Below, piece by piece: positions 18,553 through 50,859 of a DNA stretch of 53,347 nucleotides; position 1 is the first letter of the stretch; the number at the start of each line of letters is the position of its first letter. The stretch covers positions 1 through 53,347 of the forward strand of contig NZ_VOUA01000028.1 in NCBI RefSeq assembly GCF_024372725.1, in the 5' to 3' direction. This DNA comes from Methanosarcina sp. KYL-1 (lineage in GTDB: Archaea > Halobacteriota > Methanosarcinia > Methanosarcinales > Methanosarcinaceae). Both the position numbers and the translations under genes were made by a program. The notes under the pieces are model-generated. The model saw only the letters and a program-made list of their open reading frames with translations. It was not told where the DNA came from and did no database searches.

Positions 18553-19695
18553 TCAAGGATTTTGTGGACCTTTCAGGCTGTCTTCCAGTTCTTCTGAATT
18601 TTTCCACTCTGTGTCAAGTTTGTTGAGAATATGTTCTATTTTTTCTATTTGCTTCAGGGATTTTATTGAATTTTCGGATTTTTCCAGTTCTGCAAGCAGC
18701 CGGATCACAGTCAGGGGATTCCTTATACTGTCAAGGAGAAAAGCAAACTGTTTCATGTTCCTTTCTAGCTGTTCCAAAGCGTGTTTATTTATTTCTTCCA
18801 TCTCTGCCTGGTGGGTTATCTCGTACCTGGTCTCAATTGCCCCTATAATTTTTCCTTCCCGGTTTTTAAGGGGGCTGGACTTCACATGCCATTTTCTCCC
18901 ATCAGGGGTTGAAAAATCGACTGATCTGGGCTTTAGAGTTTTAAACACTTCAGCTGCAGGACAGAATGTGCACCTGCTCTCAAAACCATGCAGGACTTCA
19001 TAACAGGGTTTGCCTATTAAGTTGCTGAGAATCTCTTTATAGTTTTCAGGGCTCCCCAGTCTCATTTTTTCAAAAACAGCCCTGTTGGCCCAGAGCAGGA
19101 GGTAGCCTGTATCGATTAAAACCAGGCCCTCATTCAGGGCATCAAGGATAATTTGTCTTTCCCGGCCCAGGTTCCGGATTCCTGCTCCTTCTTCCTTTAA
19201 ATCTTTCACTTCCCTGGCAACTGCAAAAAAAACCGTTTTCTCTTCCCATCTCCCCTCCGAGAGACTGATACTTACGGGAATTTCTTTTCCGCCTTTTGTA
19301 AAGAGGGACCGGGAAGTTTTCTCTATCTCCGGGTTAATAACATCCGGATTAATAGCATCCGGGTTAATAATCTCTGCCCGGTCCGGGAGCCCGGACCCGC
19401 ACAGGAAGGAAAAATCCATAGCTTCCAGTTCTTCCCTTTCATAACCCAGTTTCATTGCTGCCCTGCTCGCATAAAGTAGCCTTCCTCCCTTTCCAAAAAC
19501 AAAGACCATCTCTTCAAGAGCATCAAAAAAGGGTTGAGCTTCTTCAAAATAGCAGGATTTCTCTTTTTTACAGTTAATGCCCCCAAAGAACAGGTTTTCC
19601 CCGGAAATTGTTGTCATTTCAGGCAGGTAAACCCGGATACTTTGAAGTATTTTTTCCCTCAGGCTTTCTAGATTCAGGGAAGCTGGGAGGCTCAT
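18553..19695 (-). CDS. PAS-domain sensor protein with degenerate kinase core
   Basis: 380 residues. PAS1 is about 55-165 (FFDALEEMVFVFGKGGRLLYAS), PAS2 about 175-300 (IILDALNEGLVLIDTGYLLLWANRA). PAS2 carries a Cys cluster GKPCYEVLHGFESRCTFCP that could bind metal or act as a redox switch. The C-terminus has an H-box-like helix, LLDSIRNPLTVIRLLAELE, but the histidine of the usual HDIRNPL is missing and no ATP-binding domain follows. It cannot autophosphorylate by the normal route and may sense and signal by contact. No ribosome site is visible; a TATA box at the right distance suggests a leaderless mRNA. Confidence 0.82.
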   Translation of the reverse strand: MSLPASLNLESLREKILQSIRVYLPEMTTISGENLFFGGINCKKEKSCYFEEAQPFFDALEEMVFVFGKGGRLLYASRAAMKLGYEREELEAMDFSFLCGSGLPDRAEIINPDAINPDVINPEIEKTSRSLFTKGGKEIPVSISLSEGRWEEKTVFFAVAREVKDLKEEGAGIRNLGRERQIILDALNEGLVLIDTGYLLLWANRAVFEKMRLGSPENYKEILSNLIGKPCYEVLHGFESRCTFCPAAEVFKTLKPRSVDFSTPDGRKWHVKSSPLKNREGKIIGAIETRYEITHQAEMEEINKHALEQLERNMKQFAFLLDSIRNPLTVIRLLAELEKSENSIKSLKQIEKIEHILNKLDTEWKNSEELEDSLKGPQNP

Positions 19696-19717
19696 AAATA
19701 TTATTATTTAATGCTCT

Positions 19718-19728
19718 CTTATATTAGA
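19718..19728 (-). promoter_or_regulatory. TATA box placed for a leaderless transcript of the PAS gene
   Basis: Minus-strand TCTAATATAAG is centred 28 bases upstream of the ATG at 19695, the archaeal TATA-to-start distance. With no AGGTG-type site before the ATG, transcription probably begins at or near the start codon. Confidence 0.5.
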
Positions 19729-19780
19729 CTTTTTCTAAAGTAGAGAGCAAAAATTTCAGTTTTCCGAGCATGAGGGGCAT

Positions 19781-20638
19781 TCAGAGTGTTTTTAAGAGGA
19801 ACTCACAGCAGTCGTTCCTGTTCCCTATGGTTTTCATCGCTTCCAGGTCGCAGTGGGGTTCAACCTTCAGAGCTATGCTCGAAAAGATTTTCCTGGTAAG
19901 GGTGCACAAAATAGGGTTTTTGCGGGCTTCTTCCCCCCTCCAGGGGCACCTGGTTCCTTTGATGACGTAAATAGCTTCATTATCTCCGTTTTTCGCAGTA
20001 AAATTCCCTCCAAGCTGGTTCATAATGTCAGCACATACCTTACTTGCGCTGGATATGTCCATCTTCCCGTTCTCAAAGCGGTACATGTCAAAGAGGGTCT
20101 TTTCAACCATTCCTGTCATCTGGTTGATAATTATTTTCTTCTGGTCGGGGGAAACTTCCTGGAGAAGGGTGGGAATGATTGCGGTCAGGATATTCTGGAC
20201 CCTGTTCTTTATTTCCAGGCTGTCGCGTTCGGCCACTAGCTGGTCGTGGAGGCTCTTGACCCGGAGCAGGGATTTAACCCTGGTTTTGAGTTCCAGCCTG
20301 TTTATGGGTTTCGTAAGAAAATCATCAGCTCCTACCTCGATGCCTCTTATCCGGTCTTCGAGCTCCGAGAGGGCTGTAAGCATCAGGACCGGGATGAAAC
20401 GGGTCTCAGGGCCGCTTTTGAGCAGTTTGCAAACTTCGTACCCATCAATTTCAGGCATCATAACGTCCAGGAGGATAATGTCGGGTTTTGCTTCTTTTGC
20501 CAGCTGGAGAGCTTCTTTTCCGCTGTGTGAGGGAATGACCTCATAGGGCTCCGACATGAGATAGGCTTCCATCAGTTCTACATTTTCCGGCAGGTCGTCG
20601 ACAATGAGGACCTTCGGTTTGCTTTCTTCACTCGACAA
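19781..20638 (-). CDS. Response regulator with methanogen-type Cys output domain
   Basis: 285 residues from TTG 20638, which has GGAGGAGG just upstream inside the KaiC gene; the longer frame from 20689 would overlap KaiC further without a site. The receiver is complete (KVLIVDDLPEN, phosphoacceptor in IILLDVMMPEIDG, LTALSE, LTKPINRLEL). A coiled-coil linker (VAERDSLEIKNRVQNIL) joins it to a C-terminal domain with GTRCPWRGEEARKNPILC and TIGNRNDCCEFLL. Those four cysteines mark the output domain found in methanogen regulators (named methanogen output domain 1). The start overlaps the KaiC stop by 11 bases, so KaiC and this regulator are coupled. Confidence 0.88.
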   Translation of the reverse strand: MSSEESKPKVLIVDDLPENVELMEAYLMSEPYEVIPSHSGKEALQLAKEAKPDIILLDVMMPEIDGYEVCKLLKSGPETRFIPVLMLTALSELEDRIRGIEVGADDFLTKPINRLELKTRVKSLLRVKSLHDQLVAERDSLEIKNRVQNILTAIIPTLLQEVSPDQKKIIINQMTGMVEKTLFDMYRFENGKMDISSASKVCADIMNQLGGNFTAKNGDNEAIYVIKGTRCPWRGEEARKNPILCTLTRKIFSSIALKVEPHCDLEAMKTIGNRNDCCEFLLKTL

Positions 20639-21350
20639 GACTTCCTCCTCCTGGCCCCTGGACTTTGATCCCATCCGACGTGATCTCAAAAACTGACATC
20701 TCGGGAGAGACGGCTGTGCTGCGCATCTTGGGGATGTTCAGGTAGCGTTCCATTTTTCCTAAATAAGAGTTTTCTTTTACCAGAAGACGGATAGACCCGT
20801 AAACCGAATACTCCGCAAGCTGGTGGGTCATATTATGTGCGGCTTCATCCATTATGAAAAGGGTTGTGCAGCCTTTTTTCCTCAGAAGGTAGCTCAGTCC
20901 GTCAAACTGGTCCCTGAACCTCCTTGCCTGGATCCGGATGGCAAACACTCCTATATTATCGATGACAAGGCATTCAATGCCTTCAGGCACAAGTTCTATG
21001 AGTGTAGGCAGTTCGATATCAAAACTTTCGGGCTTGAACCCGTATCTGGTACTCCCTATTTTTTCCGAGCGTTCCTCAAAGAGCTTTTCGATGATGAACT
21101 GTCCGCTTTCATAGTAAGGTTTAAGGTCACGCCCCAGAAACTCTGCCTGGTGCAGGAGGTCTTCAGGGGTTTCTTCGGTTGCGATCATCATGCATTTCCT
21201 GCCTTCGAGACAGGCCCGGTAAAGGAAATGAATACCGAAGATGGTCTTTCCGCTCCCGGCTATGCCAGTGATCAGGGTTACTTTGTTCATGGGATAACCC
21301 CCGCTTAGTTTTCTGTCCAGCTCATCAATACCTGTTGAAACCCTTTCCAT
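20628..21350 (-). CDS. KaiC-like RecA-superfamily ATPase (second copy)
   Basis: 240 residues from ATG 21350 with an AAGGGTG site. Walker A is GIAGSGKT (about 29-36), Walker B ECLVIDNIGV. It follows the same plan as the plus-strand KaiC at 13162: MERVSTGIDELDRKLSGGYP..., CLEGRKCMMIATEETPED, FIMDEAAHNMTHQLAEYSVYG. Its end overlaps the response regulator start, so the pair is likely made together. In Methanosarcina such KaiC-like proteins occur beside two-component genes, but their biochemical output is not established. Confidence 0.88.
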   Translation of the reverse strand: MERVSTGIDELDRKLSGGYPMNKVTLITGIAGSGKTIFGIHFLYRACLEGRKCMMIATEETPEDLLHQAEFLGRDLKPYYESGQFIIEKLFEERSEKIGSTRYGFKPESFDIELPTLIELVPEGIECLVIDNIGVFAIRIQARRFRDQFDGLSYLLRKKGCTTLFIMDEAAHNMTHQLAEYSVYGSIRLLVKENSYLGKMERYLNIPKMRSTAVSPEMSVFEITSDGIKVQGPGGGSLVE

Positions 21351-25230: not shown

Positions 25231-26922
25231 TCAAACTTCCTGCCATTTTTCAAGTTCAGATTTCTGAATTTTTTCGGGTAAATACTCAAAAAAGGCCCCC
25301 ATCCGGGATGCGGTCCTGAGGCTGTTAAATACGCCTTTTACCGTCGATTTTTTGACGTAGGCTTTGCTGTCTTCCATTTCAACGATCTCCCAGAATTTCC
25401 CTTCAAGGGTGAAAGCCTGGCCGTCCCTTATGCAGTTGACCGGGAGCTGAACTTCTCCGATTTCTTTTCCTGTCCGGGCGTTTACGGCTTCAATGGTCCG
25501 CACAGGAGAGATATTGGAATGAAGTGTTCCTTCCTCTCCGAGGTTCATGATGAATTCCGAGGCATAGATTTTCCTGTTTCTGGAGCTTACCAGGCCGGCT
25601 GCCAGCAGCTCTTCTATAATGCTTTTCAGGTCTTCGTACGCACAGAAGTTGTTAAACAGCCCGTACAGGTAGTCTTCATTCACTCCCCTGGGGCTTGAGT
25701 ACAGGACCGAGAAAATTTGCTGGACTGCAACGGACAGGTCCGGGGAGTAAACGCTGCCTTCAAGGTGGGCCTGTTTTGTATAATCCAGCAGGAGTTCGAA
25801 CAGGGTTTTTAACCGGCTGTCACACAGGAAAAATACGTTCACGAAGCCTGTCCTCCTCCCGGCAGTCCCTATCCTTTGCACGAACGAAGACAGGTCAGGG
25901 GGAACCCCGCCAAAAACTATGGCGTCGAGGTCGCCTGCCTCTATCCCTATCTCCGGGGGCATGGCTGAAACGCAGGTCCCTCTTACGGAATTTTTCATAA
26001 AATTCTCGGCCTCGTCCCTTTCCCATTTCGAGAGGCCTTCGTGGTGGACAACGACTTTGGAAGGGCCCGGGAGTTTCCCGAGAAGGGCTGCAATTTCCTC
26101 TGCTTTCTCCCGGGTGTTGCAAAAAACGAGCACTTTTTTCAGCTGCCTTTCCCTTGAGAGTTCAAAGATTTCCTCAAATGAAGCCGTATATGCCGCATTT
26201 ACTTCCCTTTCCCCTCCAGCCCGGAGGACCTGGAAATCGTCCATGTACCTTTCCCCAGGCTGTATCGCGTCCCCTGAAACGGCTGAAAAGGCATAGACGG
26301 AAAACTTTCCCGCAATCTCCCTCAGGCGCTCGAGGAGGAGGCGGACCTGGTCTCCCCTGCAGCTTCCGTCGATACTGTGGATTTCATCAAGCACTACAGC
26401 CTGCAATTCTTCAAAAACCCCCGGATGCCTGCAGAGCAGGGAGTCCAGGGACTCGGGGGTTGTTATGAGGATGTCCGGGGGGTTTTCTTCATTTATGTCC
26501 GGCCGGGTCCCTGTTTTTTTCGAGACACGCAGGCCGGGCCGTGCATTCTGCTCGCGGAGCATGTTAAAGATTTCACCTGCAAGCGCTCCTGTGGGCACAA
26601 GGTAAAGCACGGCAAGTCCCCTTTTCCCTTCCTCAAGGAGCTTTTCACACAGGGGGGCCAGGACAGCTTCGGGAATCCCGCCGGCTGCAGGAGAAACGAT
26701 AAGCGCATTTTTTCCCTCAAGCACAGGCAGGACCGCCATTTTCTGGGCCGCAAGCAGGCTTCCTGCCTGCCCGAAAAAAGTGCTCCATGTCCGTCTCAGG
26801 CGCCTCTTCAAGTCCTGGTTTTCCACCTTTTCAGTTCCGGCCTGCACATTTCCTGCAGGGCCGGTTTCCGGATTCTCATTCATATTCAGGGCTTCAGCTC
26901 CTTCTTTATCTGAGGACATCAT
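25231..26922 (-). CDS. Lhr-like superfamily 2 helicase with degenerate Walker A
   Basis: 563 residues from ATG 26922, whose first 17 bases overlap the upstream ATPase gene; the frame is open to 27030 but that part lies inside the ATPase. SF2/Lhr motifs in order are: I SPAAGGIPEA (normally APTGSGKT; the Lys and Thr are gone), Ia LVPTGALA, Ib ITTPESLDSLL, II LDEIHSID, III SAVSG, IV KVLVFCNTREKAEE, V PPEIGIEAGDLD, VI QRIGTAGRRTG. A winged-helix-like region and C-terminal domain follow. Motif II is intact but ATP binding through motif I should be poor. The Lhr-like helicase beside BrxD-type ATPases recalls BrxHI of BREX type 2. Confidence 0.85.
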   Translation of the reverse strand: MMSSDKEGAEALNMNENPETGPAGNVQAGTEKVENQDLKRRLRRTWSTFFGQAGSLLAAQKMAVLPVLEGKNALIVSPAAGGIPEAVLAPLCEKLLEEGKRGLAVLYLVPTGALAGEIFNMLREQNARPGLRVSKKTGTRPDINEENPPDILITTPESLDSLLCRHPGVFEELQAVVLDEIHSIDGSCRGDQVRLLLERLREIAGKFSVYAFSAVSGDAIQPGERYMDDFQVLRAGGEREVNAAYTASFEEIFELSRERQLKKVLVFCNTREKAEEIAALLGKLPGPSKVVVHHEGLSKWERDEAENFMKNSVRGTCVSAMPPEIGIEAGDLDAIVFGGVPPDLSSFVQRIGTAGRRTGFVNVFFLCDSRLKTLFELLLDYTKQAHLEGSVYSPDLSVAVQQIFSVLYSSPRGVNEDYLYGLFNNFCAYEDLKSIIEELLAAGLVSSRNRKIYASEFIMNLGEEGTLHSNISPVRTIEAVNARTGKEIGEVQLPVNCIRDGQAFTLEGKFWEIVEMEDSKAYVKKSTVKGVFNSLRTASRMGAFFEYLPEKIQKSELEKWQEV

Positions 26923-29506
26923 CCGGAATGCTTTCGGGATGGTAGCGCAGGAGGTCAAGCCCTTCCACGGCAGCTTTGACAAATGCCCTGGGCCTTTCAA
27001 GGGGGAGATAGGAAAAAAGGTCTCTTTCAACCGAAAAACCGTAGGCTTCGAAGTAGATTTTTTCTATGTTCCCTAGCAGGGCCTGCAGGGAAAGCTCGTC
27101 CAGGGTCTCAAGTTCTATCCTGTCCAGGCCTTCTAAAAGAGAGGCCATTTTTGAGTACGGTTCCAGGGATTCCAGCATTTCCGGCACGAAAGAAAAGATG
27201 AGTTTCAGGCCCGGTTCCCTCTCCCAGAGATACGGGACGGGCTGCTGCGTCATCTTGCTGTAGATCAGGCCGCTTTTCGTCCCCTTGTTTTCAACGTCCG
27301 GAAGGTCATCCAGGAGGGAAGCGTCGGAATTGCTAACCAGGACGAGGCCCCTGAAGGTGTTGAGAGCTTTGTCGAATTCGTAACCCGTATACCAGTAGGG
27401 GTCAAGGGTTTCTGCTTCATCAAAAAGGACCAGGATCCCTTTTAGCCCCAGGACATTTTTCGCAGCCCAGCCGAACCCGCTGAGCAGGTTGCTGTAAATG
27501 TTTGCTGCGGTCTGGTGCTCGTAAAGGGCAGGAAAACCTGCCGGGGCTTCCCTTCTCCCTTCGATCCATTCTAAAAGCCACTCCCTGTCCTCTCCGGCAT
27601 TCCAGGCCTGCAGCAGCCTGCCGAGATACGGGTGGGCCCGGAGTTTCTCTACTTTCGAATTTCCTTCCTCGTTCAGGCGGCTCATAAGGCGTTTCAGGAA
27701 GGCCCTGAAATTCAGTACGGCCCCGTTTTCCGTGCAGCGGAAATTGTTCACGAAACTTTCGTACAGTTTATGCGGCTTGTGGAAGGGTGATTCCTGCTCA
27801 TCGATTTCGATCCTGGCAACTCCCCAATTTTTACTGAGTGCGGTTTCCGAGACCAGTTCCAGGAAATGGGTTTTTCCGCTCCCGTACTCCCCGGTGACTA
27901 CCAGGGAGCCCTTGCCTGAGTCCAGCCATCTGCAGGCCTCAAGGAATTCTTTTTCCCTGCCTACCGAAAACTTTTCAACCTGGGACGGAGGCACTCCTCC
28001 CAGGCGGAGGGACTCAATGATCCTGCGGGCTGCAACTACCGGCTCAACAGGCTCCACATAAGGGTTTACCTTTCCCGCCTCCCTCCAGGCTCCGGAAATA
28101 TTTTCTTTTCCCATATCCCCGGAACCACCTGTTCCCATAAGGTGAATTTCCCTGGCTTCGCCTGTAATTTCAGCAATCGATTTCAGAAGCTGGTCAGGGT
28201 TTGAATTGCCTGATTTTCCGGGTTTTTGTCGGAAATCCCGCCCGGAAAAACTTCCTGGCAGGGAATGATTTCCTGATAGAGAAGGGTTTCCTGGTAGAGA
28301 AGGGTTTCCTGATGGAGAAGTACTTTCAGAAGGATTTCCTGATTGGTTCCGGTTTTCTTCTTCGGGGCCTGTGAGAGTGTCAATCAAACTTATGGAAGCA
28401 AGTAAATCGGAAATTCCTGCAGAACTTTTCTTTACCTCTGTTTCCTCAGCTCCTTCCGGCGCTTTGCCTTTTATGGTATCCGGGGTATTCAGCAGGTCCA
28501 GGATCTCTGCCAGGACCGGGGGTTTTTGCTGGCTCTTTGAGTCCTCTGCTTTCTCTGTCTTTTTGGGATCTGATGCCCCAGGTTTCGGAGCCTCTTTGGG
28601 GCCTGCTTTTAGAGGCTCTTTCAGAGGCTCTATAAGTTCCCCGGAATTTGTAAGCTCAGGGAGTTTCAGGGTTTCTACGGAGCCCGTGATTTCTTCTAAG
28701 TCCACTTTTATGGCAGTCCCTTTGTCTCCGGAATCCGGAACTCCGGCTGTACCCGTATTATCTGCAGGGATTTCTTTTGATAAACCCTCTTCTACTGAGT
28801 CTTTTACCTTTACCGGGTCCTTTATCCGTACTGTATCTTTTACTTTTTCCGGGTCTTTTGCTTTTATCGGGTCTTTTGCTTTTATCGGGTCTTTTGCCTG
28901 TAAAGTGTCCTTTTCCTGTATTGTGTCTTTTACCTCTACCGGATCTTTTACCTTTACCGGGTCCTTTACCTGTATCATGCCCTTTACTTCTTCGGGCTCT
29001 CTTTTATCCGGCTCCTTGTTACCCACCTGGTCGGCGGCTTTCAGCAGGTCCGAGATCCCAAACAGGTCGGGAGTTGCTTTTGGTTCAGGTTTTTCCGTAG
29101 AATCAGAGGTTTCTGTCAGGTCCGGGACTCCAAAAAGGTCCGAAGCTGCTTTCAGGTTCTGGAAGCTCATTCCAGAAGATGCGGTCGGGCGTAAAGCAGT
29201 TTTCGTAGGGAAGCTGATTTTTTCTGCTGCGCAGCCTTCCGAGTCCAGAAGGCTTGTCTCCGAAGGGAGGGGGACAGATAGGGTTTCAATTGTTTCTTTA
29301 AAGGACTCAACTTTCTGCCCAACCTTTGGTTTTGCTCCCCCTTTTACTTCAGGGATCTTTTTTGCTTCAGGGGCGATTTTTGTTTCCCTCTCAGCTTCTG
29401 CCTTCGAAGAGCCCCTAAAAATCCATCGGCTCAGTTTGCTAAGGGTCTCAGTGATTTTTCCAAAGTCAATGAATTTCTCAAGTCCGAAAAGTTTTTTTCT
29501 GGCCAC
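26906..29506 (-). CDS. DUF2791/BrxD-like P-loop ATPase with long disordered N-terminus
   Basis: 866 residues. Residues 1-40 form a basic helix. About 40-475 are low complexity, including a KDPVKVKDPVEVKD-type repeat (about 180-240) and an NPSLPGNPSLSGN repeat (about 395-415). The ATPase domain begins near 480 (VAARRIIESLRLGGVPPSQVEKFSVGRE). Walker A is GEYGSGKTH, Walker B ILVLFDEAE, and an SPFHKPHKLYESFVNNF segment lies between, as in the second ATPase. This is the DUF2791 family (BrxD in BREX), distantly related to Orc1/Cdc6. It is third in a four-gene operon, and its stop overlaps the helicase start. Confidence 0.87.
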   Translation of the reverse strand: MARKKLFGLEKFIDFGKITETLSKLSRWIFRGSSKAEAERETKIAPEAKKIPEVKGGAKPKVGQKVESFKETIETLSVPLPSETSLLDSEGCAAEKISFPTKTALRPTASSGMSFQNLKAASDLFGVPDLTETSDSTEKPEPKATPDLFGISDLLKAADQVGNKEPDKREPEEVKGMIQVKDPVKVKDPVEVKDTIQEKDTLQAKDPIKAKDPIKAKDPEKVKDTVRIKDPVKVKDSVEEGLSKEIPADNTGTAGVPDSGDKGTAIKVDLEEITGSVETLKLPELTNSGELIEPLKEPLKAGPKEAPKPGASDPKKTEKAEDSKSQQKPPVLAEILDLLNTPDTIKGKAPEGAEETEVKKSSAGISDLLASISLIDTLTGPEEENRNQSGNPSESTSPSGNPSLPGNPSLSGNHSLPGSFSGRDFRQKPGKSGNSNPDQLLKSIAEITGEAREIHLMGTGGSGDMGKENISGAWREAGKVNPYVEPVEPVVAARRIIESLRLGGVPPSQVEKFSVGREKEFLEACRWLDSGKGSLVVTGEYGSGKTHFLELVSETALSKNWGVARIEIDEQESPFHKPHKLYESFVNNFRCTENGAVLNFRAFLKRLMSRLNEEGNSKVEKLRAHPYLGRLLQAWNAGEDREWLLEWIEGRREAPAGFPALYEHQTAANIYSNLLSGFGWAAKNVLGLKGILVLFDEAETLDPYWYTGYEFDKALNTFRGLVLVSNSDASLLDDLPDVENKGTKSGLIYSKMTQQPVPYLWEREPGLKLIFSFVPEMLESLEPYSKMASLLEGLDRIELETLDELSLQALLGNIEKIYFEAYGFSVERDLFSYLPLERPRAFVKAAVEGLDLLRYHPESIPDDVLR

Positions 29507-29685
29507 GGCACCACCCGAATGGTCGTAATGTTAAAAGCTTAAAATTTAAAGTTTGATTTTTCAAAATTTCAGGGTTGATTTTCCCATAATTTTATGGAGT
29601 TTATTTTTCAGAATTTTGGAGTTTATTTTTCAGAATTTTGGGGTTGATTTTTTTCAAAATTTAACGGACGCTTTAACTTTGCTTA

Positions 29686-30930
29686 TTAACTTTGCTTATT
29701 TTCTCCCTCACTTTCCCTGCTTTTTGTTCTCAGGGCATGGAAGGAGGGGACGATAAGCTGGACAAAGAGGCGGTTGTAGGCAATTTCCCCGTAGCTCTCC
29801 TGGTCGGCCTTTTCAGCTGCTTCGCGGATTGCTTTTTCCAGTTCGACTTCGTCGAACTTTACGGCATATGCGACTTCATAGATTTTAGCCAGCTTTGCCC
29901 CGATTTCCCTTAGGAGGTCTACGGGGTCTTTTGAGAGGTTTTCAAGGTCGATCCTGACGCCTGTGGGGTTGATTTCCCCTTCAAAGGTGGTTGAGAGGCG
30001 CTGGTTGAGGGCTTCGTAGACGTGGGTCCTGCCTTCAAGAAAACCCTCGTCAGGTACGGCATAAAAGACCATGGTCCCTTTCAGGGCTCCCCGGCTGCAG
30101 GCGTCCACAAGTTCCCTGAGGTTTTGCAGCAGAGTACTCCGCTCTCTTGTGCTCATGCTGGGGGTCTGTTCGGCTTCGTCCAGGAGGACCACAAGCCCCG
30201 AATACCCGAGTTTCAGGACCCACTGGACCAGGCAGCGCAGCATCCTGAAGGCAGTAGACCTGTCAATTTTTTCGTATATGTGAAGTTCGCCAAGCCGGGC
30301 TGAAGAGGGGTTTTCTCCTTTCAGCCACTGCACGATGAGGTCAAAAAGGTCTTCATTTTTCCGGTAAAGTGCAAGGAAGGCGTTCTTAATTGCATTCTGG
30401 AAGCTGGTGCTTTCAAAGGGGCCGAGGCTCCGGAGGTAGCTTTCTACCTCGGCGTCCAGCCTGTGGACGGGGATCAGGGCCAGGCCGCTCATGGACTCCC
30501 TGTGCCATTTCCTCAAAACAGCCTCTATTCCTTTTTCAGGCTCGTTCAGGAGGGCAGCGGGTTCCTGGGGGTAGATCAGGTTGGAGACAACGGCCCTGTA
30601 TACCTCTTCCAACTTGTGGAAAGGAGCGGAGTTGGAACTCAGTTCGATGTAGGAAGTGATGTAATTGTGTTCCCAGGCTTTTCCCAGCACGTTATACAGA
30701 AAATGGGTCTTTCCGCCTCCGTAGGCGCCGACGACCATCTTAAAAGAGCTGCCTCCGCATTTTATGTAGTCTTTCAGGTACTCGGCTTCGATGGTTTCCA
30801 TGTACCTGTCCAGGCCGGCCGTAAAAAACTGGTACCCGTACAGGGGAGGCTGTCCGGTCCCTCCCACCTCGTTGATGATGCGCTTCGCTAAGGTCCTGTC
30901 GAGACTTCCAAATTCTATTTCACCAGACAT
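29686..30930 (-). CDS. DUF2791/BrxD-like P-loop ATPase
   Basis: 414 residues from ATG 30930 with GGGAG seven bases upstream; the 30948 start lacks a site. The domain starts with FGSLDRTLAKRIINEVGGTGQPPLYGYQFFTAGLDRY. Walker A is GAYGGGKTH, the SAPFHKLEEVYRAVV segment is the family's helical insert, and Walker B is GLVVLLDEAE, followed by a sensor-like MVFYAVPDEGF. This is a full-length DUF2791 protein with intact catalytic motifs and no extra domain. In BREX type 2 the BrxD ATPase acts with the Lhr-like BrxHI; here two copies flank no other BREX gene. Confidence 0.9.
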   Translation of the reverse strand: MSGEIEFGSLDRTLAKRIINEVGGTGQPPLYGYQFFTAGLDRYMETIEAEYLKDYIKCGGSSFKMVVGAYGGGKTHFLYNVLGKAWEHNYITSYIELSSNSAPFHKLEEVYRAVVSNLIYPQEPAALLNEPEKGIEAVLRKWHRESMSGLALIPVHRLDAEVESYLRSLGPFESTSFQNAIKNAFLALYRKNEDLFDLIVQWLKGENPSSARLGELHIYEKIDRSTAFRMLRCLVQWVLKLGYSGLVVLLDEAEQTPSMSTRERSTLLQNLRELVDACSRGALKGTMVFYAVPDEGFLEGRTHVYEALNQRLSTTFEGEINPTGVRIDLENLSKDPVDLLREIGAKLAKIYEVAYAVKFDEVELEKAIREAAEKADQESYGEIAYNRLFVQLIVPSFHALRTKSRESEGENKQS

Positions 30931-31062
30931 TTTTTTGCTCCCGTGCATTCAGTCCTGAGGCCAGGTGATGTGAGCTAATGCAAAATTCTTCTTTTTCCCT
31001 GAAATTCTTCGGTTTTTATGAAATCACCCGGTTTCCCCGAAATAATTCTGTCTCTCTGAACT

Positions 31063-31905
31063 TTATTCGGTTTCCCTGAACTTTATCCTGGATACGGACT
31101 CGCCAAGCCCTTTCCCGGAACGCGGAGGGATCCAGAGGAATGCCGACTTTTTCTGGGTTTCCGCCCTGGTTGCGGTAATCAGCCTGAGTTCGAAACCTTC
31201 GGTCTTCCGCTTCTTCAAACGGAAGAGGTCATAACTGAACATTATGCGGCTGTACTCACCATAATATTTCTTCAGGGGGTTTTGCAGGAATTTCTGGTCC
31301 TGGGTTACAAAAGAATAAGCCGATATGAGTTCGGAAACCGGGATTTCGGAATCATTACTCCTGTTACTCCGGAGCAGGCAGATCCTGTAAGCCTCAAGCA
31401 GCTTGCCCAGGAACTCTTCGTCATCGAAGGCTCTCCCGGTTACGGCCCTATCAAGGTCCAGCAGCTTTGCTGCAACCACTTCAGGGCTTGCCTTAACCGT
31501 TTCCATTTTCTCAAATTCGGGCCCGTAGTAAATGTCCACCTTATTTGCATCCAGTTTTACCACAAAGGTATAGAGGGAAGTCCTGAGCCGCGGGTAATGC
31601 CCTTCCAGGGAAAAACCGTGTTCTCCCAGGTTTTCGGCCAGCTTTCGCCCGAAATCCGCCTTCACCCGGGTTTCAAGGTCTGAAATCTCCTTTTTGAAAG
31701 CTGCAAGTTCCGCATTTATCCTGGCCTTAAAAGAAGGGTCAAACAGGCAGTTTTCCATGTACCTGTCCATCTTTTTCACTTCATCTTTCAGGATGCTCAA
31801 ACGCCTGGAGGGATTCTCTTCCGGTTTGCCAATTTTTTTCAGGGACAAACTCATGTTTTTTGCTAATGCGGCCTGGCTTCCAAGTTGTTTGATTACGTCT
31901 TCCAT
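31063..31905 (-). CDS. Hypothetical protein heading the DUF2791/helicase operon
   Basis: 280 residues. Residues 1-95 are helical with coiled-coil propensity (RLSILKDEVKKMDRYMENCLF... ELAAFKKEISDLETRVKADF). The middle is an alpha/beta stretch (LYTFVVKLDANKVDIYYGPEFEKM). The C-terminal part, with QDQKFLQNPLKKYYGEYSRI, then FSYDLFRL and FELRLITATRAETQ, is basic and may bind nucleic acid. I do not recognise the family. It lies 132 bases upstream of the first ATPase on the same strand and is probably the first gene of the system. No TM helix or signal peptide. Confidence 0.7.
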   Translation of the reverse strand: MEDVIKQLGSQAALAKNMSLSLKKIGKPEENPSRRLSILKDEVKKMDRYMENCLFDPSFKARINAELAAFKKEISDLETRVKADFGRKLAENLGEHGFSLEGHYPRLRTSLYTFVVKLDANKVDIYYGPEFEKMETVKASPEVVAAKLLDLDRAVTGRAFDDEEFLGKLLEAYRICLLRSNRSNDSEIPVSELISAYSFVTQDQKFLQNPLKKYYGEYSRIMFSYDLFRLKKRKTEGFELRLITATRAETQKKSAFLWIPPRSGKGLGESVSRIKFRETE

Positions 31906-32035
31906 TCAAACCCTCGCGTCCTGATCTCTCAGCAAGTTATTTTTGATGCTGTACATAAATCTGTCTATATTTTTATCCAATGTTAATAATTCAATTATAT
32001 TTATATTATCTTGTACTGTTTTTCCCCTGGAAAAT

Positions 32036-32160
32036 CATAAATTCACAAACTCCCGAATCCACAAACTCTCGAATCCACAAAACCCCAAATCCACAAAACC
32101 CCGAATCCACAAAAGCCTGAATTCACAAAAGCCTGGATCTGCGAACTCCTTATTCCCGCT
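32036..32160. repeat. 15-16-bp tandem repeat (AATCCACAAAACCCC)
   Basis: About eight drifting units of the type TCCACAAA(A)CCCC(G)AA lie upstream of the operon start. The rest of the gap to 32690 holds no gene I can support. A 62-codon minus frame (32374-32562) has no ribosome site. Confidence 0.75.
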
Positions 32161-32694
32161 GACTGAATAAGTACATTGGAATAACTAAAAAGGTCATCCC
32201 GGTGACTGTGAAATCTACGGGATAACCAAAAAGGGGCTCCGTAGAAATCCTGTTATGTTTCTTGAAATGGCCCTTGTTTGTGATCGGTCTCAACCCAGAT
32301 TTCAGGTTAGGTCTTTATCCTTGATCGTTCCCGGGGCCCTCACAGCTTTAGAAGAAAGCGGCGTTTTCCAAAATCACTGAAAATAGGTCGTGGGGTGAGT
32401 TACTAAAAACCGTAAGCACTCGAACTCTGCGCACTTATGAATAAACATGGAGCATGGTTGATGTTTGCGTTTTTCCAATTTGATCAATGACTGACCCCCC
32501 GACCTGAAAATAAATGATTGCAAAATAAACAGCTGACGGAGTTCTACACTCTGATTCGACATACATTTTCAATGACACTCATAATTTGAGAAAAAATTCT
32601 ACAAAAACGAAAAAAGTAAAAGCGCTCAAAAAAACGGCAAGGGTTCAAAAAGCAGAAGCGAATACAGCCTGAGAATATTCTCTTTTAAATCTCT

Positions 32695-32990
32695 TATTCA
32701 TTTCTTTTTGGAGAGGCGCCGCCAGACAAGCTGGCGGGGTAATCCTTCTTTCAATTGGACTGAAAAACTGTTTTTGGGTTATGCAAGTGCTTCCCAGGTA
32801 AACTGGCGGGGGATTACTCTATCGCCTGGCTTGAAAACTGTTTTCGGGGTCTATGCAAGTATTTCCCAGGCAAGCTGACGAAGGATTCCTCTATCGCCCG
32901 GACCGAAAGACGGTTGCCAGGTTCAAGGAAAGTACTTTTCGGGTCAGGCGGTGTGTTTCTCCGGAGTATTCCGGTTCTTTTCATCGAATC
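32695..32990. repeat. 72-bp tandem repeat with CCGCCAG/CTGGCGG hairpin (also at 50940-51060)
   Basis: Units begin CCAG.CAAGCTGGCGGGG at 32722, 32794 and 32866, exactly 72 bases apart. A shorter fourth start lies at 32917. Each unit carries a GAAAACTGTTTTCGGG-type dyad and an ATGCAAGTATTTCCC end. The first is preceded by a 7-bp stem hairpin (32719-32725 with 32731-32737). The same flank, hairpin and one unit recur at 50940-51060. The stretch to 33420 also has ATCCAGGCATCAAC repeats (33150-33182) but no gene. Confidence 0.85.
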
Positions 32991-33429
32991 ATATCTGGTT
33001 TTGTTTGCTTTATTCTTTCCTGGCTGGCAGGCAGGTCCCTGATGCATGGTCCCGGACACGTGCGGCGGGGGGAAAGAAACTCAGTATTACTATTTACGGC
33101 CCTGCCGGAATCATCTCAACCGATTAATAAGGAAACACCAGAGTATCAACATCCAGGCATCAACATCCAGGCATCAACATCCTTAAAATTTCTAACATAA
33201 AGGACCGGCCCGAAGCCGGATTTGCGGCGTTCAGCAGGCCTTTTTACCGGGTATATAATAAAGCTTAAATTGAGTGCCGTAATTACTGGATAAACTGTGC
33301 TGAATAAACGGATTATGCAGGCTGAATAAGCTGGTTATGTCAGGGCGGGTTCGTTTACTCGTTAGATATTAGTTTAACCTCAGCCGTTCATATGCCTGTC
33401 AATACGTTAGAATGCCCTTTCTCTCTCCG

Positions 33430-33555
33430 AAGAGAGCAGATTAACCGGCAGCTTACTAACTCAAAAGCTTAACTCAGCGGCTGACCAGGCAGCTTATTAA
33501 CTCAAAAGCTTGACTCGGTGGCTGGCCCGGCGGCTGGCCCGGCGGCTTACTAACC
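33430..33555. repeat. Imperfect tandem repeat upstream of ileS
   Basis: CGGCAGCTTACTAACTCAAAAGCTTAACTCAG recurs with changes (33446 and 33489 onward), followed by GGCTGGCCCGGC twice. It fills the leader region of ileS, so it may affect that gene's mRNA, but there is no sign of a tRNA-sensing element. Confidence 0.7.
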
Positions 33556-33593
33556 TTATACCTTAAATTTATCGTTCACAGGGAGACCCCCAC

Positions 33594-49327: not shown

Positions 49328-49389
49328 AGAACATCGTTTTATAATGTGTGAACATTTTTCCACATAATTCTGAATTCCACGTGGATACA

Positions 49390-50859
49390 ATGCAAAAGCC
49401 CGAACTCCTCCGCATAATCCTCTCCCAGCAGTCCTTCTTTCAAAAGGAACAGGACATTATCCCCCGCGACCTGAAAATAGACTCCCACCTGGAGGGCAAC
49501 GAGACAGTCATGATCTGCGGGATCAGAGGCTGCGGGAAAACTTCTTTTCTTAAGTGGATAGCGGACAGGGTGGATGGGATAAAAGTTTACATTAACTTTG
49601 AAGACATCCGGCAGGAAGATTTAGAACTCCGGAATATTCAGGATATTCGGGATGTTAAGGATATTTGGAATTTTCAGGACATTTTGGATATTGTTTCAGA
49701 GCTTTACGGAAATTTTGGAAAAGAGATTGAAGAGAGTGAAGAGAATGGAGAAAAGCAGGTCTACTATTTTCTGGAAGAAATCCAGCATATCAGGCTCTGG
49801 GAGAGGTGGCTGGACAACCTTTATGAAGACGGCATAAAGGTTTTTGTTACCGGCTCTAACTCAAATTTCCTTAACTCCGAAAACGGAACCTTCCTTCAGG
49901 ACCGGGCCAGGCAGCTCAAGCTTCTTCCCTTCTCCTTTAAAGAATCCCTGCGCCTGAAAGGAATCGAAATACCTTACCTTGACTTCCCTAACTCCCCTAA
50001 CCCCCCTAACCCCCCTAACTCCCCTAACCCCCCGGATTCACCGGGCTCCTCTGACTCCCTGGACCCGTCCGGGGAAGATGGAATCTTCTCCCTGTTCCTC
50101 CGTTATTTCGAAAACGGCGGTTTTCCGGCTGTAATCAAAAATGATGATGCCGGACTTGCAGGGAAATATTTTGAAGAAATTCTTCAAAAAGAGGTCATTG
50201 CCCGGTATGACATTGAGGATCCCGGGGGGTTAAGGGAGCTTGCAGTGTTCCTTATTTCAAACGTGGCTTCGGAGTATTCTTTCGAAACGCTGAAAAGAGT
50301 GAGCGGGATCGGGAGTGAGGGGACTGTCAGGCGCTACCTGGACTATCTGGAGGAGGCTTTTTTGCTGTACCGGGTCCCGATGCTCAACCATTCGCCGGAA
50401 AAAGAGGGATCAGGGATGGCAGTGGGACCAGGGGCGGCAGAAAAGGCGGCTTCCCGCAAGGTCTATGCCGGAGACACGGGTTTCTTTAAAGCAGTGGCTT
50501 CCAATTACCCGGACAGCCTGGGGCTGAGGTTTGAGAACCTGGTGTTTCTGGAACTGCTCAGGCGGAGGAAAGAGGTATCCTATTTCAGGGACCGGAAGGA
50601 ATGCGACTTCGTGGTCAGGGAAGCAGGAGCTGCGAAGATCACAGAGGTGATCCAGGTCTCGACTTATTTCGGGAACCCTGCTGTCAGGGAAAGGGAGCTT
50701 GCAGGGCTTCTGGGGGCGATGAAGGAGTACGGGCTTGGAGAGGGGCTTATCCTGACCCTGGCTGATGAAGAGGTTCTGGAGCTGGAATGTGAGGGTTGGG
50801 GTGGGAAAGAGAATAGGAAAATAGTGGTTAAGCCGGTGTGGAAGTGGATGCTGAATTGA
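49390..50859 (+). CDS. AAA ATPase of the DUF4143 family
   Basis: 489 residues from ATG 49390; the frame is open from GTG 49348 and neither start has a strong site. Walker A is GIRGCGKTS, Walker B YYFLEEIQHI, then VFVTGSNSNFL (sensor). The DUF4143 C-terminal domain follows: VRRYLDYLEEAFLLYRVP, a GLRFENLVFLELLRR helix, and RDRKECDFVVRE, a PD-(D/E)XK-like core. A PNPPNPPNSPNPPDSPG repeat (about 205-225) and an RNIQDIRDVKDIWNFQDI repeat mark slippage inside the gene. The family is common in archaea, possibly linked to toxin or DNA-related roles, without proven function. Confidence 0.9.
   Translation: MQKPELLRIILSQQSFFQKEQDIIPRDLKIDSHLEGNETVMICGIRGCGKTSFLKWIADRVDGIKVYINFEDIRQEDLELRNIQDIRDVKDIWNFQDILDIVSELYGNFGKEIEESEENGEKQVYYFLEEIQHIRLWERWLDNLYEDGIKVFVTGSNSNFLNSENGTFLQDRARQLKLLPFSFKESLRLKGIEIPYLDFPNSPNPPNPPNSPNPPDSPGSSDSLDPSGEDGIFSLFLRYFENGGFPAVIKNDDAGLAGKYFEEILQKEVIARYDIEDPGGLRELAVFLISNVASEYSFETLKRVSGIGSEGTVRRYLDYLEEAFLLYRVPMLNHSPEKEGSGMAVGPGAAEKAASRKVYAGDTGFFKAVASNYPDSLGLRFENLVFLELLRRRKEVSYFRDRKECDFVVREAGAAKITEVIQVSTYFGNPAVRERELAGLLGAMKEYGLGEGLILTLADEEVLELECEGWGGKENRKIVVKPVWKWMLN

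What the first reader, a model, noticed from the sequence alone, without database searches (positions are those of the whole stretch)
25231..31905. Four-gene DUF2791/helicase operon without any other BREX gene
A coiled-coil protein, two DUF2791 (BrxD-like) ATPases and an Lhr-like helicase lie on one strand, with overlap between the last two. BrxD and the Lhr-like BrxHI are a pair in BREX type 2, but here there is no PglX, PglZ, BrxA, BrxB or BrxC, and the ATPase is duplicated. The set looks like a self-standing DNA-processing or defence-like system whose first gene (31063-31905) has no known family.
Basis: partly seen in the sequence, partly recalled or inferred. Interest (0 to 1): 0.75.

Follow-up and report, generated by a model that had tools for sequence, protein, structure and literature searches.

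The report
Four-gene BREX/Shango-like helicase-loader system
The window holds a real, unnamed four-gene set (a winged-helix protein, two different ORC-like ATPases and a helicase) that recurs in the same order across archaea and bacteria, is a sister of helicase-ATPase pairs used against viruses in BREX and Shango, and in this methanogen lineage has a helicase whose ATP-binding site has been lost.

Summary
Observation confirmed. Four same-strand genes lie at 31905→25231: g1 (no Pfam, NCBIfam or PADLOC family), g2 and g3 (PF10923 BrxC_BrxD ATPases) and g4 (BrxHI/SngC-like helicase). Homologous sets keep the order g1-g2-g3-g4 in 31 of 42 examined loci from archaea and several bacterial phyla; most others are cut by contig ends or have members elsewhere in the genome. 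The ATPase is not a recent duplication: g3 is an ancient paralogue, usually with an N-terminal PcrA/UvrD-type Tudor domain that is missing here. g1 is predicted as a helical bundle plus a winged helix nearest to that of ORC1. The set is neither BREX nor Shango: no Pgl/Brx core genes, no TerB protein, an extra ATPase, a separate helicase clade. Its order parallels Shango's; a distant version sits beside a complete BREX locus on a cyanobacterial conjugative plasmid, another on a small Desulfomonile plasmid. Against pure defence, in Desulfofervidales the genes are near-universal but dispersed in housekeeping operons. In this methanogen and its sister genus the helicase lost Walker A but stays under purifying selection. 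Best reading: an ORC-like helicase-loading DNA-surveillance system, probably immune in origin. Role unproven.

The parts
31063..31905 (-). g1: 280-aa protein of no Pfam/NCBIfam/PADLOC family; helical bundle (res. ~2-94), small beta region (~101-138), winged-helix C-terminus (~162-280)
   Evidence: No family. AF2 pLDDT 93.2, C-terminal part alone 93.9. Top VIA rows for the C-terminal part are ORC1 winged helices, Z 7.0-5.8. g1 homologues precede g2 in 39 of 42 loci.
31066..31422 (-). g1 predicted winged-helix region (residues 162-280)
   Evidence: AF2 secondary structure; 8s0e_A ORC1 Z 7.0, rmsd 3.1, 78 aligned; below the Z 8 caution line, so suggestive only.
29686..30948 (-). g2: 420-aa BrxD-like (ORC/Cdc6-class) AAA+ ATPase, intact Walker A/B
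   Evidence: PF10923 1.3e-46; BrxD 1.3e-39, SngB 6.5e-19. Walker A GAYGGGKT at 30706-30729, Walker B LLDEAE within 30169-30192.
26906..29506 (-). g3: 866-aa second, paralogous BrxD-like ATPase; ATPase domain in the C-terminal ~370 residues with intact Walker A (27869-27892) and Walker B (27410-27433)
   Evidence: PF10923 4.1e-18 at res. 493-617; separate g3 clade; coordinates.
28067..29506 (-). g3 low-complexity N-terminal extension (~480 aa) with KDPxxx hexapeptide repeats (28787-28966), in place of the PcrA/UvrD-type Tudor domain of most relatives
   Evidence: Tandem repeat 28799-28971; relatives' N-termini.
25231..27030 (-). g4: Lhr-core/BrxHI/SngC-like SF2 helicase (start codon uncertain: TTG 27030, ATG 26922/26919 or ATG 26883)
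   Evidence: DEAD 4.7e-24, Helicase_C 5.6e-10; BrxHI 1.1e-55, SngC 1.1e-46; start candidates.
26668..26694 (-). g4 motif I: SPAAGGIPE in place of S-x-T-A-S-G-K-T-E (Walker A lysine lost)
   Evidence: Alignment of 35 helicases; all compared loci outside this lineage have GKT; coordinates.
25852..25878 (-). g4 motif VI: QRIGTAGRR in place of QRIGRGNRR
   Evidence: coordinates.
26377..26391 (-). g4 motif II LDEIH, retained here; DGVH in three of the four sister-genus genomes compared

Best explanation
The four genes encode one DNA-processing machine. Two ORC/Cdc6-class AAA+ ATPases (g2, g3), with a winged-helix DNA-binding adaptor (g1), form a loader that recognises a DNA substrate and places an Lhr-core/BrxHI-type helicase (g4) on it, as proposed for the BrxD-BrxHI dyad of BREX-2 and expected for SngB-SngC of Shango. 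In most lineages g3 also carries a PcrA/UvrD-type Tudor domain that could dock the complex on a partner protein. The most likely role is surveillance of abnormal or foreign DNA (innate immunity in origin), with domestication as a chromosomal function in some lineages. In this methanogen clade the ATPases are intact but the helicase has lost motif I, so there it can only act as a DNA-binding or structural subunit, and ATP hydrolysis by g2/g3 must drive the machine. Shown: gene content and order, family relations, co-occurrence when unlinked, loss of helicase motifs with purifying selection. Inferred: complex formation, loading, DNA surveillance, immune role.
For: Conserved order in 31/42 loci, often with 4-bp stop/start overlaps. 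g1 and full-length g2 occur in the same 5 of 60 relatives (p about 2e-7 if independent, relatedness ignored). Correlated distances of g1-g4. Retention when unlinked: ANME genomes with g4 elsewhere; Desulfofervidales g1 6/6 and g2 5/6. g2/g3 belong to BrxC_BrxD; BrxD is described as an ORC-Cdc6 AAA+ with a proposed helicase-loading role (PMC12839542). g4 resembles BrxHI and SngC, helicases placed with DruE and DpdJ in a possible antiphage-specific SF2 clade (PMC12278908). Shango has the parallel order TerB-SngB-SngC. A distant set lies 172 bp after a complete BREX locus on the Aulosira conjugative plasmid, and one is on a 27-kb Desulfomonile plasmid. g1 winged helix is nearest ORC1's. Tudor: PF21196 in 6/15 g3 N-termini, and the leading PDB profile hits are PcrA/UvrD-type helicases, at weak E-values.
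Against: No direct functional evidence. The winged-helix match is weak (Z 7, no Foldseek match at E <= 0.001). Most loci are not in obvious defence islands. In Desulfofervidales the genes sit in housekeeping operons, and in the sister genus the operon is present in 4/4 genomes next to ileS, unlike typical mobile immunity. Loss of helicase catalysis here shows that helicase activity is not always needed.
Confidence: 0.5

Rival explanations
1. Housekeeping genome-maintenance machine: the set is a chromosomal repair, R-loop or replication-transcription-conflict system, recruited through the Tudor domain to RNA polymerase or another partner, and only looks like BREX/Shango because those systems recruited related loader-helicase pairs.
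For: Present in 6/6 Desulfofervidales genomes, with g1 in an hps-phi-g1-panE-hpt operon, g2-g3 beside rpe/selA or a TldD-type gene and g4, where found, beside dnaE (gene names read by eye from the protein sequences). Present in 4/4 sister-genus genomes at one site. Low dN/dS for g1 and g2 (0.03-0.19). PcrA/UvrD-type Tudor domain, which in PcrA is an RNA polymerase interaction domain (PMC5397179).
Against: Patchy elsewhere (1 of 31 genomes of the window's genus, 7 of 17 in an ANME family, many MAGs incomplete); archaeal and bacterial branches mixed; plasmid copies, one directly beside BREX.
Confidence: 0.3
2. Divergent Shango: g1 replaces SngA, and a second ATPase was added, but the system works exactly as Shango.
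For: Parallel gene order; g4 and g2 match SngC and SngB.
Against: g1 shows no detectable similarity to SngA/TerB proteins; helicases of the four-gene sets form a clade apart from SngC and BrxHI; g2 scores better with BrxD than SngB; true Shango exists separately in other genomes of the window's genus.
Confidence: 0.1
3. In this methanogen lineage the operon is a decaying remnant: the helicase is a pseudogene in the making and the set has no function.
For: Motifs I and VI lost in g4, DExH lost in three of the four sister-genus genomes; g4 dN/dS 0.2-0.3 against 0.13-0.16 in active lineages; g3 fast-evolving; Tudor domain lost.
Against: All reading frames open in the window despite dS about 1 to the sister genus; dN/dS clearly below 1 for all four genes; g2 and g3 nucleotide-binding motifs intact.
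Confidence: 0.1

Closest known systems
BREX type 2 BrxD-BrxHI dyad
   Same: BrxD-class ATPase and a BrxHI-class helicase in one operon; best PADLOC matches of g2 and g4 are BrxD and BrxHI.
   Different: No PglX/Y/Z or PglW among the flanking genes scanned; g2 scores 135.7 against the NCBIfam BrxD cutoff of 350; extra ATPase g3 and g1; g4 is ~525 aa in the main family and lacks the ~170-aa C-terminal part of BrxHI/SngC (retained in the Aulosira and Desulfomonile versions).
Shango (SngABC)
   Same: Gene order: first protein, ATPase, helicase; homologous ATPase and helicase.
   Different: SngA is a TerB-domain protein of about 500-1050 aa, not detectably related to g1; only one ATPase; separate helicase clade.
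ORC/Cdc6 helicase loaders
   Same: AAA+ class assigned to BrxD in the literature; g1 winged helix most like ORC1's.
   Different: Winged helix is on a separate protein; the partner is an SF2 helicase, not MCM.
PcrA/UvrD Tudor domain
   Same: N-terminus of g3 in most relatives matches PF21196 weakly.
   Different: Fused to an AAA+ ATPase instead of an SF1 helicase; absent in the window's lineage.

Membership tests
PF10923 BrxC_BrxD (ex-DUF2791) | Score above the curated cutoff (22.2 bits) | tested here: met
   g2 159.8 bits, g3 65.9 bits.
BREX type 2 | BrxD equivalog score (NF033438, cutoff 350) | tested here: not met
   135.7 bits for g2, 67.4 for g3.
BREX type 2 | PglX, PglZ, BrxC/PglY, PglW in the locus | tested here: not met
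   None among ten flanking window genes scanned with PADLOC; the rest of the genome was not searched for them.
BREX type 2 | Helicase with C-terminal Lhr-CTD-like domain (~700 aa) | tested here: not met
   g4 matches only positions 24-523 of the 698-position BrxHI model.
Shango | SngA TerB-domain protein | tested here: not met
   g1 has no PADLOC hit; hhalign probability 0.15% against three SngA-type proteins.
Shango | SngB-type ATPase and SngC-type helicase | tested here: inconclusive
   Matches at 6.5e-19 and 1.1e-46, but BrxD and BrxHI score higher and g4 forms a separate clade.
Shango | Three genes in the order A-B-C | tested here: not met
   Parallel order, but a fourth gene, g3, lies between g2 and g4 in all intact sets.
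Active SF2 helicase | Walker A GKT in motif I | tested here: not met
   Window SPAAGGIPE, sister genus EGISE; GKT in all other loci compared.
ORC-type winged helix (g1) | Winged-helix fold | tested here: inconclusive
   Top eight VIA rows are ORC1 winged helices, Z 7.0-5.8, below the Z 8 caution line.
Anti-virus defence system | Protection against viruses or plasmids | not testable with these tools
   Needs an experiment.

The most novel reading that the evidence does not exclude
A third, previously undescribed class of ORC-like loader plus SF2 helicase machine, standing beside BREX-2 and Shango and shared by archaea and bacteria. It is mobile immunity in some hosts and a domesticated, dispersed core genome-surveillance apparatus in others, and in Methanosarcinaceae it works with a catalytically dead helicase.
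Probability: 0.35. Interest if true: 0.85.

Novelty: new variant of a known kind. Interest (0 to 1): 0.62.

Why it matters
The role of BrxD-BrxHI in BREX-2 and of SngB-SngC in Shango is unresolved. A compact sister system without methyltransferase, phosphatase or TerB protein isolates the loader-helicase part, in a clade where nature has already removed helicase catalysis, and in another where the genes became near-universal and dispersed. That makes the helicase-loading hypothesis and the origin of these immune modules directly testable.

Tried and rejected
g1 as a TerB/SngA homologue: no profile similarity. g1 as an MIT domain or other named fold: MIT domains lead the whole-model list (Z 9.9), but such scores are common for helical bundles; Foldseek found no PDB or viral match at E <= 0.001. 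Sequence search of g1 in the PDB gave only weak, mostly helical or coiled-coil matches. Viral origin: no relative in viral contigs for g2 or g1, nor in phage records for g2. Local gene duplication of the ATPase: rejected by the tree. Consistent defence-island context: flanking genes include scattered GmrSD, Type I specificity, reverse-transcriptase and other hits, but many housekeeping genes; there was no background control, so no enrichment is claimed. Literature: no paper in the held library mentions DUF2791, or BrxD-like/BrxHI-like/Shango-like systems under those terms; the NAR 2026 BREX survey reports no archaeal type-2 BREX and treats BrxD-BrxHI as a BREX-2 dyad (PMC12839542; passages read, not the whole paper). 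The Ter-systems paper was not held. The first helicase tree did not finish; FastTree was used.

Full report
What is there. Four ORFs on the minus strand, 31905 to 25231, encode proteins of 280, 420, 866 and about 540-600 aa. g2 and g3 score above the curated cutoff of PF10923 BrxC_BrxD (the former DUF2791, from general knowledge), and g4 is an SF2 helicase closest to BrxHI and SngC. g1 matches no family in Pfam, NCBIfam or PADLOC. Ten flanking genes scanned show no BREX or other convincing defence gene; the neighbours include ileS (named by eye), a fasciclin protein, a DUF7544 protein and a GNAT acetyltransferase.

Conservation of the set. A scan of one genome per species with a g2 profile returned 34 loci, from ANME archaea, Methanoperedens, Methanodesulfokora, Brockarchaeota, Cloacimonadota, Poribacteria, Brocadia, Caldatribacterium, Desulfofervidaceae and others. 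MAG taxon labels can be wrong; one 'Deltaproteobacteria' contig (L032) nests among the ANME sequences. Across 42 loci, counting extra ones from whole genomes and plasmids, 31 hold g1-g2-g3-g4 in that order, often with 4-bp overlaps; the rest hold subsets, several at contig ends. In two loci (L057, L076) g2 is split in two reading frames. Distances of the four genes across 23 loci are strongly correlated (Mantel r 0.73-0.91). In 60 relatives of the window genome, g1 and full-length g2 occur in the same five genomes.

Linkage is not the only tie. Where the cluster looks broken, missing members were sought in the same genome. Three ANME genomes keep g4 on another contig. In the order of Desulfofervidaceae, g1 is in 6/6 genomes and g2 in 5/6, yet g1 sits in an hps-phi-g1 operon, in most of them followed by panE-like and hpt genes, g2-g3 between rpe and selA or beside a TldD-type gene, and g4, where found, beside dnaE (gene names read by eye). 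In one single-contig genome g1 and g2 are about 100 kb apart. Retention despite dispersal argues for one shared function. It also argues that in this order the set is a core chromosomal feature rather than a mobile cassette. Two of these genomes gave no g4 above 1e-20.

Relation to BREX and Shango. Shango loci read TerB protein, SngB, SngC, the same frame as g1, g2, (g3), g4. g1 is not detectably related to SngA. In the ATPase tree all g3 proteins form a branch apart from g2, SngB and BrxD, so g3 is an ancient paralogue (the root is a midpoint, and the long Aulosira/Desulfomonile branches are uncertain). In the helicase tree the g4 proteins split from SngC plus BrxHI with support 100 (FastTree, few SngC/BrxHI rows). 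True Shango is found in two other genomes of the window's genus, in one of them next to BrxL and PglZ. On the Aulosira laxa conjugative plasmid a distant g1-g2-g3-g4 set follows a complete BREX locus (BrxA, BrxC/PglY, PglX, PglZ, BrxD, BrxHI) by 172 bp; Desulfomonile plasmid pDESTI.01 carries a similar set. These are the strongest contextual arguments for an immune role.

Domain anatomy. AF2 models g1 with high confidence (pLDDT 93) as an N-terminal helical bundle, a small beta region and a winged helix. The C-terminal part alone ranks eight ORC1 winged helices first, Z 7.0-5.8, which is suggestive but below the tool's caution line. BrxD is described as an ORC-Cdc6 AAA+ ATPase without DNA-binding domains, with a proposed helicase-loading role (PMC12839542); a separate winged-helix protein would fit a loader whose DNA-binding part is supplied in trans (inference). 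Most g3 proteins begin with a ~45-residue domain that matches the PcrA/UvrD Tudor family (PF21196 in 6 of 15, best 6.6e-4). In PcrA this domain binds RNA polymerase (PMC5397179); whether it does so here is unknown.

The window's lineage is unusual. The window and its sister genus (4/4 genomes) keep the operon between ileS and the DUF7544 gene. In at least 14 other genomes of the window's genus the same two genes are only 0.6-2.4 kb apart, against 9.7 kb here. ileS is 90% identical between the window and the sister genus, as high as to its nearest congener, so shared descent with loss in the other species, or transfer by recombination with flanks, are both possible. In this lineage g4 has lost Walker A (SPAAGGIPE or EGISE for ASGKTE) and motif VI is altered; three of the four sister-genus genomes also lost the DExH box, while every other lineage compared keeps GKT. 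Yet g4 remains open in the window with dN/dS 0.22-0.32, above 0.13-0.16 in active-helicase lineages but well below 1. The Tudor domain of g3 is replaced by about 480 residues (about 650-710 in the sister genus) of low-complexity sequence. g2 and g3 nucleotide-binding motifs are intact. A further Lhr-like helicase of 1003 aa with only partial similarity is elsewhere in the genome.

Mechanism. The most economical account is a loader-helicase machine: g1 plus g2/g3 recognise and open or encircle DNA, and g4 is placed on it. In Methanosarcinaceae the motor would be the ATPase pair alone, with g4 as a structural or DNA-binding part. The biological role is between immunity (homology, plasmid and BREX context, patchy distribution) and genome maintenance (dispersal and near-universality in one order, fixed site in another genus, Tudor domain). 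I favour an immune-type DNA surveillance origin with domestication, at 0.5, and rate genome maintenance 0.3.

Novelty. No held database names the set or g1, and no held paper was found that describes it; subscription papers and preprints were not searchable. It is filed as a new variant of the BrxD-BrxHI/SngB-SngC kind, not as BREX or Shango, because defining features of both were tested and not met.

Noticed in passing
window 31906-33593: A 1.7-kb region without a clear gene between g1 and ileS holds several short tandem repeats (16 bp x 5.7 at 32040-32130, 72 bp x 1.9 at 32764-32898, 41 bp x 2.2 at 33447-33535).
   Followed up: no
L086 (Deinococcus psychrotolerans plasmid NZ_CP034187.1) 3978-17011: Two tandem BrxD-like/BrxHI-like sets with long coiled-coil hypothetical proteins as first genes: another apparent variant of the same architecture.
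   Followed up: partly
L023 6377-17496 (G009) and L022 6493-12225 (G021): Complete Shango (SngA, SngB, SngC) in other genomes of the window's genus, in G009 close to BrxL and PglZ.
   Followed up: yes
L036 7056-8022: A foreign gene (~245 aa, resembling RhuM-type proteins by eye) inserted between g3 and g4 in a Cloacimonadota contig.
   Followed up: no
window 18553-21350: KaiC-like ATPase, response regulator with Methanogen output domain (MetOD1) and PAS protein in a row.
   Followed up: partly
window 49348-50859: AAA_14/DUF4143 ATPase.
   Followed up: no
plasmids collection: 681 plasmid records match g2, mostly Klebsiella (447) and Salmonella (143), at under 60% identity and mostly partial coverage; which system these belong to was not examined.
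   Followed up: no
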